Assembly (NCBI GenBank): GCA_028281465.1
Contig: JANQJV010000153.1
Span: 1 to 53,684, forward strand
Reading direction: 5' to 3'
DNA: 53,684 nt
Source: Azospirillaceae bacterium
GTDB taxonomy: Bacteria; Pseudomonadota; Alphaproteobacteria; Azospirillales; Azospirillaceae
This document shows, one piece after another, positions 27,212-32,880 of this stretch; positions within the stretch are counted from its first letter, which is position 1; every line of letters starts with the position of its first letter. The position numbers and the translations under genes are program-made. Under the pieces are notes generated by a model. That model searched no databases. It worked only from the letters and a program-made list of their open reading frames with translations, and was not told where the DNA came from.

Positions 27212-28005
27212 GGTGTTGTTTGCGCCTCAGGCATCTCGCGGTTGAAGAATTGGCGCACCACCGGGTCATCTGCATGGTCGCGCAGATCTTGGGGCCGGCC
27301 TTCAGCCACAATCCCTTTGATCCGCCGGTCCAACATGATAACGCGATCGGTGACCGCAAAGATGCTCGCTAATTCGTGCGTAACGATGACGAAGGTGATG
27401 CGTAGGCTGCGTGCCAGGTCAAGGACCAGGGCATCGAGCGAGGCCGATGTGATCGGGTCGAGACCGGCGGATGGTTCATCGAGGAAGATGATACTCGGAT
27501 CAAGTGACATGGCGCGCGCGATGGCTGCGCGTTTCTGCTGACCGCCCGAAATCTCGTTGGGAAGGCGGTCGGAGAATTCGCCGAGGCCGACCAGTCCAAG
27601 TTTGAGTTCGGCGATGCGATTCATGGCTGGCAAGGGAAGCTGCGTGAACTCCTCCAACGGCAGCCGGACGTTTTCGAGCAGCGTCATGGAGCCGAAGAGC
27701 GCACCCATCTGATACATGACGCCAATGCGTGCCAGGATCGACCGGCGTTCGGCGCCGACCGCGGTGACGATGTCGCGTCCCGCGATTTCGATGGCGCCCC
27801 GGGCTGGCGGATAGAGCCCGATCATGTGCTTCATCAAGGTGCTCTTGCCGCTGCCGGAGCCGCCGAGAATGCCAAACACCTCACCTTCGACGACATGAAA
27901 TGTGACGTGTTTGAGCACGGCGCGACCGGCGTATTCGGCACGCAAGTTGTCGACGCGAATCACCGGCCGGTGCGCGGGGTCGGGGGCGGCCGTGGCCATG
28001 GTCAT
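27208..28005 (-). CDS. MlaF-type ABC transporter ATPase
   Basis: 265 residues. Walker A is GGSGSGKSTLM, the signature is EISGGQQKRAAIARAM, Walker B is SIIFLDEPSAGLDP and the switch histidine is VIVTHELAS. The start at 28005 overlaps the permease stop as ATGA; a longer frame upstream runs into the permease and is not needed. It powers lipid movement through the MlaE-type permease. All motifs are intact. Confidence 0.94.
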   Translation of the reverse strand: MTMATAAPDPAHRPVIRVDNLRAEYAGRAVLKHVTFHVVEGEVFGILGGSGSGKSTLMKHMIGLYPPARGAIEIAGRDIVTAVGAERRSILARIGVMYQMGALFGSMTLLENVRLPLEEFTQLPLPAMNRIAELKLGLVGLGEFSDRLPNEISGGQQKRAAIARAMSLDPSIIFLDEPSAGLDPITSASLDALVLDLARSLRITFVIVTHELASIFAVTDRVIMLDRRIKGIVAEGRPQDLRDHADDPVVRQFFNREMPEAQTTP

Positions 28006-29126
28006 ATCCCCAGAGCGAAGGAGATGGCGGCGAACACACCGTCGGCCAGGATGATCAGGACGATGCCCGACACGACTGCTCCGGTGGTGGCTTCGCCCAC
28101 CGCCCGCGCCCCGCTGCCGGCCGTGAACCCGGCGCGGCATCCGGCCATTGCCACCAGGGCGCCAAACATGATTGCTTTGGTCAGGCCGTTCAGCAGGTCC
28201 TGAAGTCCGACAGCGCCCACCACCTGATTGATGAAGGTGACGGGGGGGAACCCCAGCGACAGGAACACGACCAGACCACCCATCAAGCCAGCCAAATTCA
28301 TGAACATGGCCAGCAGGGGGGTGACCAGCAATGCGGCGATCAAGCGCGGCAACACCAGGAAACGCAGGGGGTCGATGCCCATGGTGGTGAGTGCATTGAT
28401 CTCGTCGTTCACCTTCATGGCGCCGAGTTCGGCGGCGAAGGCGGAGCCGGACCGGCCCGTCAGAACAATCGCTGTCATCATCGGACCGAGTTCTCGGGCG
28501 AGTGACAGCCCGACCACATTGGCCACCAGCAATTCGGCTCCATACCAGCGGAGCTGGATGGCCGATTGCAGCGCCATGATCAGGCCGATGACGAAACCGA
28601 GCAGCATGACCAGGGGTACGGCGCGTACGCCAGCCTCTTCGGCAATGCGTAAGATGTCCCTAAACCGGATGGAGCGCGGATGGCGGGCAGCGTGCGCACT
28701 CGCGAGGGCCAGTTCACCCAGGAATGCGATCTGGGCTGCGAATGCCTGCAGACCGGCGAAAATATCCCGGCCGATCCGTTCGATGCCGGACAAGACCGGA
28801 CCTTGTTCTGCCGGAGGTGGCTCCTCCACCCGGCAGAAGCGCTCATACAGACGTTGCACATCCGCGTTTGCCCCGACCAGCGTAAACCGGCCTTGCTCGG
28901 CCTGATGCCGGCGCAACTCCAAGAGCAGGCTGATGCCCGAGCCGTCGCAGTAGGAAATGGCATGCACATCGGCCACGAGCTGGTTCGGGCGATCCTTGAG
29001 CACGGCCATCGCACGGTCCCACACGGTTCCGACGGTCCAGGCTTCTAGTCGGCCTCGGAAGCGCAGAGTGACAGCGTTGCCGGCCCGGTCGACCGCGAGG
29101 TTGATGGATGGCCCGTCTATGGTCAT
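28002..29126 (-). CDS. MlaE-type permease with N-terminal STAS domain
   Basis: 374 residues from the ATG at 29126 (MTIDGPSINL). Residues 1-100 form a STAS-like domain with VADVHAISYCDGSGISLLLE. The rest is the MlaE permease: VPLVMLLGFVIGLIMALQSA, LARELGPMMTAIVLTGRSGS, EINALTTMGIDPLRFLVLPR and a final GIVLIILADGVFAAISF. In other systems MlaB supplies the STAS part as a separate protein; here it is fused. A TTG at 29201 would lengthen it but would overlap the divergent gene. Confidence 0.93.
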   Translation of the reverse strand: MTIDGPSINLAVDRAGNAVTLRFRGRLEAWTVGTVWDRAMAVLKDRPNQLVADVHAISYCDGSGISLLLELRRHQAEQGRFTLVGANADVQRLYERFCRVEEPPPAEQGPVLSGIERIGRDIFAGLQAFAAQIAFLGELALASAHAARHPRSIRFRDILRIAEEAGVRAVPLVMLLGFVIGLIMALQSAIQLRWYGAELLVANVVGLSLARELGPMMTAIVLTGRSGSAFAAELGAMKVNDEINALTTMGIDPLRFLVLPRLIAALLVTPLLAMFMNLAGLMGGLVVFLSLGFPPVTFINQVVGAVGLQDLLNGLTKAIMFGALVAMAGCRAGFTAGSGARAVGEATTGAVVSGIVLIILADGVFAAISFALGI

Positions 29127-29219
29127 CGTGAAACGCGCGCGTCCATGCGTAATGGTTTCCTTGAACGGTCTTGATTGGGTAGACTGAGCTCCAATGACCA
29201 ATCCCGAAAAGGATTTGCC

Positions 29220-31760
29220 GTGACGCCCTGGTGCCGGTTGGGGCGCACGGCCCGTGGCCGACGCGTTCGATCGCGCCGGCCGACAGCCACCAAACCAATG
29301 GTTCGCGTCATGACATTGCAGAAAAAACCGTCAAGAGCCAGGATTCTGGTTGCGATGGGCCTGGCCGCGTTCGGTGGCCCGACCGTTCGGGCCGTGGCCT
29401 GTGCTGTTCTTTTGTGCCTTGGAGCGATCGCCACCGATGTTCCCGTTTTCGGTGCGGCTGACGCCGAGGCGCAAGCGCGCAGTTCGGTGCTGCGCAGCCA
29501 GTCGCGTGTTATCTCCGGCGCGATCAATCGGCAGATTCGGCGGGCATTTCGGCCGACCCTGCGGGTGCGTAACAGTGCCGGCGACATCAGTGCGATCGCC
29601 GTGGGGGGACAACGCCGTTTCCTCTCTGTCATCTCCGAAGACGGCAGTGTGCGGGTTTGGGATTTGAAGAACGGACGCCAACTGAAGAGCATCGCCGCCC
29701 GGTCCACCGGCCGGCCGATGGCGTCTGACGCTGGCGTTCTTGGAACCGGCCAGCGCACCCGCAGCGTTGATGGCGGCCGCCGTATCGTGATCGTCGGTGG
29801 GGAGCGCGGCGCCATGATTTGGGATGCGCTGAGCGGCCAGACCATCGCGAATTTGCGGGGCCATCGGGGCGGTGTCAATGCGGTGCGCCTGTCGCCCGAC
29901 GGTCGGGTGGCCGCGACCGGCGGTGCGGATGGCACCGTGCGCCTATGGGATACGGCGCGCGGTCGCCAGTCGGCAGAGTTGCGCGGCCACCGCGACGATG
30001 TGACCGCGCTCGCCTTTAGTCCGTCCGGCCATACGTTGGTCAGCGGTGACGATGACGGGACCCTCATCGTGTGGGATACGCGCTCTGGCCGGAGCCTGCG
30101 CACCGTTGACGGGCATCGTGGTGCCGTCACAGCCATCGGATTCGGCCGCGACGACGGCGCGTTTTTCAGCGGTGGCGAAGACGGCGATGTCGAGGCCTGG
30201 ACAGCGAATGGGGATCGGTCGCGGGAGTCCTGGTCGGCTGGACGTGGTGACGTCACCAGTCTCGATGTTGCTCCCAACGGAACGGTCGTCACGGCGACCG
30301 ACAGCGAGCGCGTGACCATTTGGCGTTCCAACGGCCGGCGCTTGCAACGCATCGAGGACGACGACAACGACGTGGTCATGGTGGCATTCACGGCGGATGG
30401 CAAGCGCATCATCACGGGTGGCGAAGATGGTCGCGCCAAGATCTGGGATGTCGACTCCGGTCGGTTTCTGGCGCAGTTGATTTTGACCCGGGACGGTTGG
30501 GCCGTGACCGATGCCAATGGTCGCTTCGACGGCTCGACCGGTGGGGTCGGCAATGTCGACTGGGTTGGCTCTCAGGCAACCCTCAACATCGCTAATTTTT
30601 CCGAACCGTATTACGAACCGGGTCTGTTGGCGAAGACGTTGGAAGCGCCCCAGGCGATCATCACGCAAAACGCGGTCTCGGTCGAAGAGGAGGGCGTGGG
30701 GGTGCCGCCCAGTATCGTCATCCAGTCTTCGGTCGGAACGCGAACCACTCAGCCCGGTGAGGCGCGAGTCACAGTGGTTGCGACCGACGAGGGCGCTGGA
30801 ATCCAGGATGTGCGTCTCTATCAGAACGGCAAATTGGTTGATCCAGCGCGCATTGTCGGCGACAGCACGAGTGGTGATCGCCGGTCGGTGGCCTACGGTG
30901 TCGCGCTGATCGGCGGTCGCAATGGCTTCCGTGCCGTTGCCACGAGCATCGAAGGCATCGAGGGCGAGGGCGCGTCGGTCAACATTGAGGTGCGGGCCGC
31001 TGATCCACAGCCAACGCTGCATCTGGTGGCGATCGGCGTCAACCGATACGCCAATCCACAGCTCAACCTCAATTATGCCGTGGCGGATGCATCAGGTTTC
31101 GTGCAATGGGCCCAGCGTCAAGGCCGTCGGGCATTCCGTGAGGTCAAAGTGTACGAGTTGTTCGACACTGATGCGTCGGCCGATGGAATCACCTCGTTGC
31201 TTGGTCGCTTGCGTAACACGGATCCGGAAGATGTGGTGGTGATCTACATGGCCGGCCATGGTGAGACCTCCGGTGGCAATTGGTACTTCCTGCCGACCGA
31301 GTTTGGCCGCACGCTGACCTTGCAGGCGGTGGCGAGCCAGGGCGTGGCATCCCAGGATTTGCGTGACGCCATCGTCAGAATGGGGGCCCAGAAGGTGTTC
31401 ATGCTGATCGACGCTTGCAAATCCGGTAGCATGCGCCGAGCCTTCGGCGGCGAGGCGGACCGCAAGGATATCCAATCCATGAGCCGGACCGCCGGTATCC
31501 ACGTGATCGCAGCGACGGACAAGAACCAATTGGCGGTGGAGCTGTCCGACCTGGGCCATGGCGCGTTCACGTACACCGTGTTGCAGGCCCTGCAAGGTCA
31601 AGCCGACTTGCAGCCGCGCGACGGCGTGCTCAAGGCCATGGAGGTCTTGAACTACTCGGTGGAAACGGTGCCGGCGATCGCGTTCCAATACTCCGAAATG
31701 GAGCAATTCCCGACCGTCTACAGCCAGGGCGCTGACTTCCAGGTTGCTGCGACGCGGTAA
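29220..31760 (+). CDS. exported WD40 beta-propeller/caspase-like (C14) protease fusion
   Basis: 846 residues from a GTG preceded by aaaagga; ATG at 29298 or 29310 are alternatives. A signal-like hydrophobic stretch (VACAVLLCLGAIATDVPVFG) ends in AEAQA. Residues about 125-420 hold seven WD40-type blades, for example SEDGSVRVWDLKNGR, GGADGTVRLWDTARG and GGEDGRAKIWDVDSG. A linker and an Ig-like segment (VTVVATDEGAGIQDVRLYQNG) follow. The caspase fold begins at LHLVAIGVNRYANPQ; the catalytic pair is His680 in YMAGHGE and Cys733 in LIDACKSG. Caspase-like proteases of bacteria cleave after basic residues in most studied cases. The target is unknown. The gene diverges from the Mla operon. Confidence 0.9.
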   Translation: MTPWCRLGRTARGRRVRSRRPTATKPMVRVMTLQKKPSRARILVAMGLAAFGGPTVRAVACAVLLCLGAIATDVPVFGAADAEAQARSSVLRSQSRVISGAINRQIRRAFRPTLRVRNSAGDISAIAVGGQRRFLSVISEDGSVRVWDLKNGRQLKSIAARSTGRPMASDAGVLGTGQRTRSVDGGRRIVIVGGERGAMIWDALSGQTIANLRGHRGGVNAVRLSPDGRVAATGGADGTVRLWDTARGRQSAELRGHRDDVTALAFSPSGHTLVSGDDDGTLIVWDTRSGRSLRTVDGHRGAVTAIGFGRDDGAFFSGGEDGDVEAWTANGDRSRESWSAGRGDVTSLDVAPNGTVVTATDSERVTIWRSNGRRLQRIEDDDNDVVMVAFTADGKRIITGGEDGRAKIWDVDSGRFLAQLILTRDGWAVTDANGRFDGSTGGVGNVDWVGSQATLNIANFSEPYYEPGLLAKTLEAPQAIITQNAVSVEEEGVGVPPSIVIQSSVGTRTTQPGEARVTVVATDEGAGIQDVRLYQNGKLVDPARIVGDSTSGDRRSVAYGVALIGGRNGFRAVATSIEGIEGEGASVNIEVRAADPQPTLHLVAIGVNRYANPQLNLNYAVADASGFVQWAQRQGRRAFREVKVYELFDTDASADGITSLLGRLRNTDPEDVVVIYMAGHGETSGGNWYFLPTEFGRTLTLQAVASQGVASQDLRDAIVRMGAQKVFMLIDACKSGSMRRAFGGEADRKDIQSMSRTAGIHVIAATDKNQLAVELSDLGHGAFTYTVLQALQGQADLQPRDGVLKAMEVLNYSVETVPAIAFQYSEMEQFPTVYSQGADFQVAATR

Positions 31761-32004: not shown

Positions 32005-32880
32005 TTAAAGCGGCGGGATCTGGTCGCGCAGCGTGGGCCAGGCGTCCTCCCAGCAGCAGTCGTGATCGGCACCGTGGACCGGCACCACGGATTCCAGCCC
32101 GCGTTGCATCCGGCCGGCAAAGCTGCGCACGACGTGTCCCGGTACGATGTCATCATCGGAGCCGACGAAATGGCGTTGCGGCACCGATTGCAACCTTTCG
32201 GCATAGCGAATCGGATTCAGTGATCCGTCCAAAGGGGTGACCCGGTGATGACGCACCCAGGCATCCAAGTCGAGGGGCGATGCCACGGTTCCAAAGGCAC
32301 GCACGTCCTGACGCTGTGCTGCCAGAAGTGCGGCGACGACCCCGCCGCCCGAATAGCCGATGAGGACCAGGCCGGCGGCACCCGTCTCCCGTTTGGCGAC
32401 GTCGAGCGCCCTTCCCGTGGCGGCAATGACCTCTGGCGCAAAGCGGTGTGATGACCAGTAGGTGACGTCGCAGCGTCGCCACGTGTTGGCCATGGTGTAT
32501 TGGCACGGTCGAGCCAAGTAGAGCACCGGCGTATGTGGGTCGAGGGCGGCGAGCCGGAGTGCGGTCGGATTGACTGGCGTCGGATCCTCCGTCGGCCGCT
32601 TACGCCGAAAGGCCAAGCCGTCCCCTTCAAGATAGACCGTCAAGAAGGGGGCCGTTTCAGTCTTGTCCACGGTTTCAGGCTGGCGCCAATAGCCGGACAG
32701 CACGAACGGCCCGGTGTCGAAAACGATGGGGGTCAAACCACCACCACGGGCTACCGAATCGGCTGTGGCCAAGCGTGAGTCCAAGGAGCCAGCACAGGCC
32801 GGCAAGAGGAGCGCGACGCCCAGGACGAGGCTGCGCAGGACCGCAGGTTGGGCGCAATGACGTCTTGATTGATGCCGCAT
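32005..32880 (-). CDS. alpha/beta-hydrolase-fold lipoprotein
   Basis: 291 residues. A signal peptide ends in a lipobox-like LLLPACAG. The fold shows LTVYLEGDGLAF, VLYLARPCQYTM, the nucleophile elbow LIGYSGGGVVAALL, an acid strand HFVGSDDDIVPGHVV and the catalytic histidine in VHGADHDCCW. Esterase or lipase activity in the periplasm is likely. Two cysteine pairs (PCQY...RRC, DCC) could form disulfides. It starts 1 bp after the stop of the HD-GYP gene, so it is in the same operon. The substrate is unknown. Confidence 0.82.
   Translation of the reverse strand: MRHQSRRHCAQPAVLRSLVLGVALLLPACAGSLDSRLATADSVARGGGLTPIVFDTGPFVLSGYWRQPETVDKTETAPFLTVYLEGDGLAFRRKRPTEDPTPVNPTALRLAALDPHTPVLYLARPCQYTMANTWRRCDVTYWSSHRFAPEVIAATGRALDVAKRETGAAGLVLIGYSGGGVVAALLAAQRQDVRAFGTVASPLDLDAWVRHHRVTPLDGSLNPIRYAERLQSVPQRHFVGSDDDIVPGHVVRSFAGRMQRGLESVVPVHGADHDCCWEDAWPTLRDQIPPL

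What the first reader, a model, noticed from the sequence alone, without database searches (positions are those of the whole stretch)
29220..31760. Secreted WD40 propeller fused to a caspase-like protease
Seen directly: signal-like N-terminus, seven WD40-type blades, an Ig-like linker, and a C14 fold with His680 (YMAGHGE) and Cys733 (LIDACKSG). WD40 propellers often act as docking or sensing platforms in caspase-type systems (family knowledge). Here the protein appears to be exported and to sit on its own, beside a lipid-transport operon and with no neighbouring toxin, pore or nucleotide-signal gene. An exported orthocaspase with its own propeller suggests envelope surveillance or protein processing. 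This is the strongest candidate in the window for an undescribed system.
Basis: partly seen in the sequence, partly recalled or inferred. Interest (0 to 1): 0.72.

Follow-up and report, generated by a model that had tools for sequence, protein, structure and literature searches.

The report
Exported propeller-caspase linked to outer-membrane autotransporters
The gene encodes a caspase-like protease exported to the bacterial envelope and carrying its own seven-bladed WD40 propeller, and across two groups of bacteria it almost always occurs with, and usually sits next to, a particular kind of outer-membrane surface-display protein, which suggests a two-part surface-protein processing system that I could not find described.

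Summary
Window 29220(or 29310)-31760(+) encodes a signal peptide, seven WD40 blades, an Ig-like domain and a C14 caspase with intact His-Cys dyad. All 29 homologs examined keep the dyad and the Asp before the Cys; nearly all have a signal-peptide-like N-terminus.

The Mla operon is not a conserved neighbour, and the gene is not solitary in family terms. In 17 of 27 genomes an autotransporter beta-barrel lies within 5 kb of this caspase (0.16 expected). In 82 Azospirillaceae genomes the partner-type barrel scores above 100 bits in exactly the 10 genomes that carry the caspase, and in none of the other 72. The barrel is predicted to be a 12-stranded translocator with a plug helix (closest to EstA, AaaA, NalP, EspP) and carries variable passengers. 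A third gene, a lipoprotein alpha/beta hydrolase, recurs; the window has it at 32005-32880. The window lacks a linked barrel, but its genome has three partner-type barrels on other contigs.

Most likely: an envelope Arg/Lys-type orthocaspase dedicated to a surface-displayed autotransporter, possibly as its maturation or release protease. The link is well supported; the cleavage step is inferred. I would call it a new variant of a known kind (WD40-caspase).

The parts
29220..31760 (+). WD40-orthocaspase gene (start at GTG 29220; ATG 29298, 29310 or 29355 are alternatives)
   Evidence: full-length homologs
29310..29477 (+). signal peptide, probable SPase I end ADAEAQA|RSS (counted from ATG 29310)
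   Evidence: hydropathy peak; A-x-A-Q end conserved in 8 of 8 close homologs; signal-like N-termini in the wider set
29490..29579 (+). conserved segment after the signal peptide (AIxxNxRQxFRPxF type), candidate docking segment
   Evidence: mean pairwise identity 0.34 against 0.285 for the propeller and 0.19 for the signal region
29583..30485 (+). seven-bladed WD40 propeller
30486..30704 (+). conserved post-propeller linker (GRFDGS...PYYEPGLLAK)
   Evidence: mean pairwise identity 0.43, as conserved as the caspase domain
30705..30989 (+). Ig-like (Big_7-type) domain
   Evidence: (sub-threshold)
31026..31724 (+). Peptidase C14 caspase domain; His codon 31257-31259, Cys codon 31416-31418
32005..32880 (-). 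lipoprotein alpha/beta hydrolase with lipobox-like Cys (LPAC) and conserved Ser-Asp-His-type residues; recurring neighbour of the caspase and of the partner barrel

Best explanation
It is an exported, catalytically competent orthocaspase that works in the cell envelope together with one subfamily of autotransporter (type V) outer-membrane barrels and, usually, a lipoprotein alpha/beta hydrolase. Most likely the propeller and the conserved N-terminal segment dock the enzyme on the barrel or its passenger. The caspase, with the acidic residue typical of Arg/Lys-specific orthocaspases before its Cys, then cleaves the passenger or the passenger/barrel junction to mature or release the surface domain. 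Shown by computation: export signal, architecture, intact dyad, genomic adjacency and co-occurrence with the barrel, barrel identity. Inferred: physical docking, Arg/Lys specificity, the barrel as substrate, and release as the outcome. In the window's own genome the partner would be one of three unlinked partner-type barrels (contigs C172, C376, C28).
For: Adjacency: PF03797 barrel within 5 kb of the caspase in 17 of 27 genomes against 0.16 expected; in six of these it is the genome's only autotransporter domain. Gene order and orientation vary (divergent, co-directional either way, convergent), so this is not simple inherited synteny. Co-occurrence: the A3 barrel profile scores >100 bits in exactly the 10 caspase-bearing Azospirillaceae of 82, next best 63.8 bits; counting only the five genomes that did not supply A3, 5 of 5 against 0 of 72, p = 5e-8. 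In the second class 15 of 18 caspase genomes have it, p = 5e-7; genomes outside A3 alone, p = 0.005. Two genomes with a lone caspase (G130, G253) carry a barrel+hydrolase pair elsewhere. Barrel fold: 12 strands plus plug helix, best PDB matches EstA, AaaA, NalP, EspP. Passengers vary: choice-of-anchor L, NIDO, others. Dyad and Asp-x-Cys kept in 29 of 29. An Arg at the start of the pre-barrel region is invariant in the 15 aligned barrels.
Against: The window itself has no linked barrel. No cleavage was shown. The invariant Arg lies inside the predicted plug helix (residue 67 of helix 48-86) and may be a structural plug residue paired with the invariant barrel aspartates. In a folded autotransporter that site lies in or beyond the pore, so a periplasmic protease would have to act before or during translocation. 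Genomes are related, so the p-values are not for independent events.
Confidence: 0.5

Rival explanations
1. The barrel serves the caspase: the protease is anchored at, or passed through, the outer membrane by the barrel via its conserved N-terminal segment (a split or two-partner autotransporter), and it acts outside the cell on other proteins.
For: The segment right after the signal peptide is more conserved than the propeller. In L106 a 115-aa secreted protein carries a similar segment (iE 0.005). By eye it resembles the helix in front of the barrel, and several partner barrels have very short passengers of their own.
Against: A profile of the segment does not find the barrel helices beyond chance (iE about 30). 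Other partner barrels carry full passengers (NIDO, choice-of-anchor L).
Confidence: 0.2
2. Stand-alone envelope surveillance protease tied to the Mla lipid-transport operon.
For: Exported, propeller-bearing, next to an Mla-type operon in this window.
Against: No Mla gene recurs beside any of the other homologs; barrel and hydrolase do.
Confidence: 0.07
3. Competition or defence module: the autotransporter displays a variable effector, and the caspase activates it or degrades foreign material.
For: Variable passengers on a conserved barrel and patchy distribution within genera; caspase homologs take part in prokaryotic conflict systems (PMC7159879, PMC8195603).
Against: No immunity gene, nucleotide signal or NTPase recurs beside it; the PADLOC caspase match is weak (38 bits); passengers look adhesin-like rather than toxic.
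Confidence: 0.1
4. An ordinary exported orthocaspase with general envelope protein turnover; the barrel link reflects shared lifestyle, not function.
For: Nine C14 domains in this genome alone; WD40 is the commonest partner domain of prokaryotic caspases (PMC3501461).
Against: Adjacency about 100-fold above expectation with shuffled gene orders, and exact co-occurrence within genera.
Confidence: 0.1

Closest known systems
WD40-containing prokaryotic metacaspases/orthocaspases (Asplund-Samuelsson et al. 2012, PMC3501461; cyanobacterial orthocaspases, PMC8283722)
   Same: C14 domain with His-Cys dyad joined to WD40 repeats; WD40 is the commonest accessory domain in both surveys.
   Different: Here export, N-terminal propeller, conserved post-propeller linker, Ig domain and C-terminal caspase form one fixed architecture linked to a type V barrel; the 2012 paper's text, which analyses operons, has no occurrence of 'autotransporter'.
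Classical type Va autotransporters processed in trans or in cis (NalP, EspP, EstA, AaaA)
   Same: The partner barrel has the 12-stranded fold and plug helix.
   Different: Known passenger processing is autocatalytic or by serine/aspartate-type proteases (own knowledge); no linked caspase. A review of autotransporters does not contain the word caspase.
EACC1-associated caspase (NF047832)
   Same: Best NCBIfam match of the caspase domain.
   Different: 61 bits against a cut-off of 140; cytoplasmic conflict-system context not present.
Apaf-1 type WD40 platforms
   Same: WD40 propeller in a caspase-related protein (phmmer hits 3sfz, 3shf).
   Different: Apaf-1 is a separate cytosolic activator with an NTPase; here propeller and protease are one exported chain without NTPase.

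Membership tests
Peptidase C14 / orthocaspase | C14 (p20) domain over curated cut-off | tested here: met
   47.7 bits vs 21.4
Peptidase C14 / orthocaspase | catalytic His-Cys dyad with Asp before Cys | tested here: met
   29 of 29 homologs
Peptidase C14 / orthocaspase | cleavage after Arg/Lys | not testable with these tools
   inferred from the DxC acid and from the Arg-P1 preference reported for orthocaspases (PMC8283722)
WD40-metacaspase | WD40 repeats in the same chain as C14 | tested here: met
Exported protein | N-terminal signal peptide | tested here: met
   hydropathy plus family-wide A-x-A end; no dedicated predictor was available
EACC1-associated caspase (NF047832) | score over curated cut-off | tested here: not met
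   61.2 vs 140 bits
Caspase-type anti-phage defence systems (PADLOC) | defence caspase with its partner genes | tested here: not met
   weak caspase match only, no partner genes
Mla-linked envelope surveillance system | conserved association with Mla genes | tested here: not met
   no Mla gene recurs in the other loci
Type Va autotransporter (the partner protein, not the window gene) | 12-stranded C-terminal barrel with plug helix, signal peptide, terminal aromatic | tested here: met
   PF03797 over cut-off, AF2 12 strands plus helix 48-86, Foldseek to EstA/AaaA/NalP/EspP
Two-partner or caspase-processed autotransporter system | physical interaction or cleavage between caspase and barrel | not testable with these tools
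   only genomic linkage and co-occurrence

The most novel reading that the evidence does not exclude
A dedicated caspase-autotransporter system: an exported WD40-orthocaspase, a specific type V barrel with interchangeable passengers and a lipoprotein hydrolase together mature, display or release surface proteins, so that a caspase-fold protease has a constitutive extracytoplasmic secretion role unrelated to cell death or cytoplasmic defence.
Probability: 0.45. Interest if true: 0.78.

Novelty: new variant of a known kind. Interest (0 to 1): 0.64.

Why it matters
Functions of bacterial caspase homologs are mostly guessed from cell-death analogies. A catalytically intact, exported family tied to one identifiable outer-membrane partner gives a concrete substrate candidate and makes the question testable in harmless soil and water bacteria. 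It would add a caspase-fold protease to type V secretion.

Tried and rejected
1) Homology between the caspase's N-terminal segment and the helix in front of the partner barrel, suggested by eye (NxRQxLRP versus SNRVATILRP): a profile built from 14 caspase segments (two of which were mis-anchored) did not hit the barrels beyond chance (iE about 30); not claimed. 2) The invariant Arg of the barrels as a proven cleavage site: it lies within the predicted plug helix; kept as a lead only. 3) Mla association: not conserved. 4) PDB relatives by sequence profile of the linker-Ig-caspase part: none at E 0.01. 5) Foldseek of the full-length model: the top 50 are all WD40 proteins, so it gave no separate caspase match. 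7) Hydrolase as an exclusive marker: it also occurs in many genomes without the caspase (23 of 72 Azospirillaceae), so it is a looser associate than the barrel. 8) A first align_proteins call failed on a wrong coordinate.

Full report
WHAT IS THERE. The ORF at 29175-31760(+) is open over 861 codons. The best-supported starts are GTG 29220, with AAAAGGA six bases upstream, and ATG 29298 or 29310. Order of parts: signal peptide ending AEAQA, a conserved segment of about 30 residues, seven WD40 blades, a conserved linker (GRFDGS...YYEPGLLAK), an Ig-like domain (Big_7, sub-threshold) and a C14 domain (47.7 bits, cut-off 21.4). AlphaFold2 on 8 family sequences gives pLDDT 80.5. Foldseek matches the propeller to a 7-bladed design with TM 0.90.

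THE FAMILY. Full-length homologs with 41-53% identity exist in Azospirillaceae; the named ones are Azospirillum sp. RU38E (L032) and two Rhodospirillales MAGs (L030, L031). More distant ones, of about 800-900 residues, occur in a second class of Pseudomonadota and scattered elsewhere. The family name Azospirillaceae for the window is likewise inferred from the named relatives. His, Cys and the Asp two before the Cys are present in 29 of 29. In contrast, about a quarter of alphaproteobacterial metacaspases lack the dyad (PMC3501461). Signal-peptide-like N-termini recur throughout.

NEIGHBOURS. I fetched 29 homologous loci and clustered their genes. The Mla operon of the window does not recur. 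Two genes do. First, a secreted protein with a C-terminal autotransporter barrel (PF03797 over cut-off). Its predicted structure is 12 strands with a preceding helix 48-86, and its closest solved structures are EstA, AaaA, NalP and EspP. Its passengers vary: choice-of-anchor L, nidogen-like, or short Ser-rich stretches. Second, a lipoprotein-type alpha/beta hydrolase with a conserved G-x-S-G-G-G, an Asp and a His, present in the window at 32005-32880.

STATISTICS. Across 27 genomes a PF03797 barrel lies within 5 kb of the caspase in 17, against 0.16 expected from the number of such barrels per genome. Two further genomes (G089, G091) also have adjacent barrels by profile. Gene order and orientation differ between loci: barrel-hydrolase-caspase, caspase-barrel-hydrolase, divergent, convergent. 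A profile of the partner barrels (A3) scores above 100 bits in exactly the ten Azospirillaceae genomes with the caspase and in none of the 72 without it (next best 63.8 bits). Because five of those ten supplied the profile, the clean test is 5 of 5 against 0 of 72, p = 5e-8. In the second class the overlap is 15 of 18 and 18 (p = 5e-7), or 5 of 8 against 3 of 30 among genomes not used for the profile (p = 0.005). The presence is patchy inside three genera, which argues against mere shared ancestry, but genomes are not independent and the p-values should be read as strong indications only. G130 and G253, whose caspases stand alone, carry a barrel+hydrolase pair elsewhere.

THE WINDOW'S OWN CASE. 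The window has caspase plus hydrolase, 244 bases apart and convergent. Its genome has seven autotransporter domains, three of them partner-type and on other contigs: C172 (992 aa), C376 (1019 aa) and C28 (589 aa). The C28 protein is the best match of the G020 partner barrel (E 1e-27).

MECHANISM. Shown by computation: export signal, catalytic competence by sequence, genomic coupling to a surface-display barrel. Inferred: that the barrel protein is the substrate or the docking site. Orthocaspases prefer Arg at P1 (modelled for a Nostoc enzyme, PMC8283722). The 15 aligned partner barrels have one invariant Arg just before the barrel domain, also seen in the three window-genome barrels, but it sits in the predicted plug helix and may be structural. 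The alternative that the barrel carries the caspase outward is not excluded; my test of helix homology was negative.

NOVELTY. WD40-caspase fusions are known (PMC3501461, PMC8283722, PMC5756287). I found no paper in the held library linking caspase homologs with autotransporters; subscription papers are not held, so absence is weak evidence. I therefore rate it a new variant of a known kind, with a plausible case for a new system.

Noticed in passing
genome G000 contigs C211, C426, C68, C213, C217 (three), C364, C15: The genome holds nine C14 caspase domains, three of them within 6 kb on C217 and one in a 3187-aa open frame.
   Followed up: no
window 28002-29201 (-): STAS (MlaB-like) domain fused to the MlaE permease in one protein, heading an operon with ATPase, MlaD and auxiliary lipoprotein genes.
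   Followed up: no
L106 6833-7177: A 115-aa secreted protein directly upstream of the caspase carries a segment like the caspase's conserved N-terminal segment followed by disordered sequence.
   Followed up: partly
A3 column R67; L074 10295-11413: Single invariant Arg outside the barrel domain in 15 partner barrels, inside the predicted plug helix; candidate cut site or structural plug residue.
   Followed up: partly
L089 1987-3807: A second exported caspase-like protein (607 aa) lies between the hydrolase and the WD40-caspase.
   Followed up: no
L129 4457-6389, L130 169-2345, L132 4657-6845, L133 5110-7103, L137 4370-6419: Partner-type barrel and hydrolase form pairs away from any WD40-caspase; in G225 and G111 the caspase was not detected at all.
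   Followed up: partly
L106 10647-12425 and L111 5485-7176: Partner barrels with a passenger of unknown family that looks Rossmann/ThuA-like by eye; no Pfam match beyond the barrel.
   Followed up: no
L083, L084, L085, L086: A conserved 289-296 aa exported protein follows the caspase in all four members of one genus.
   Followed up: no
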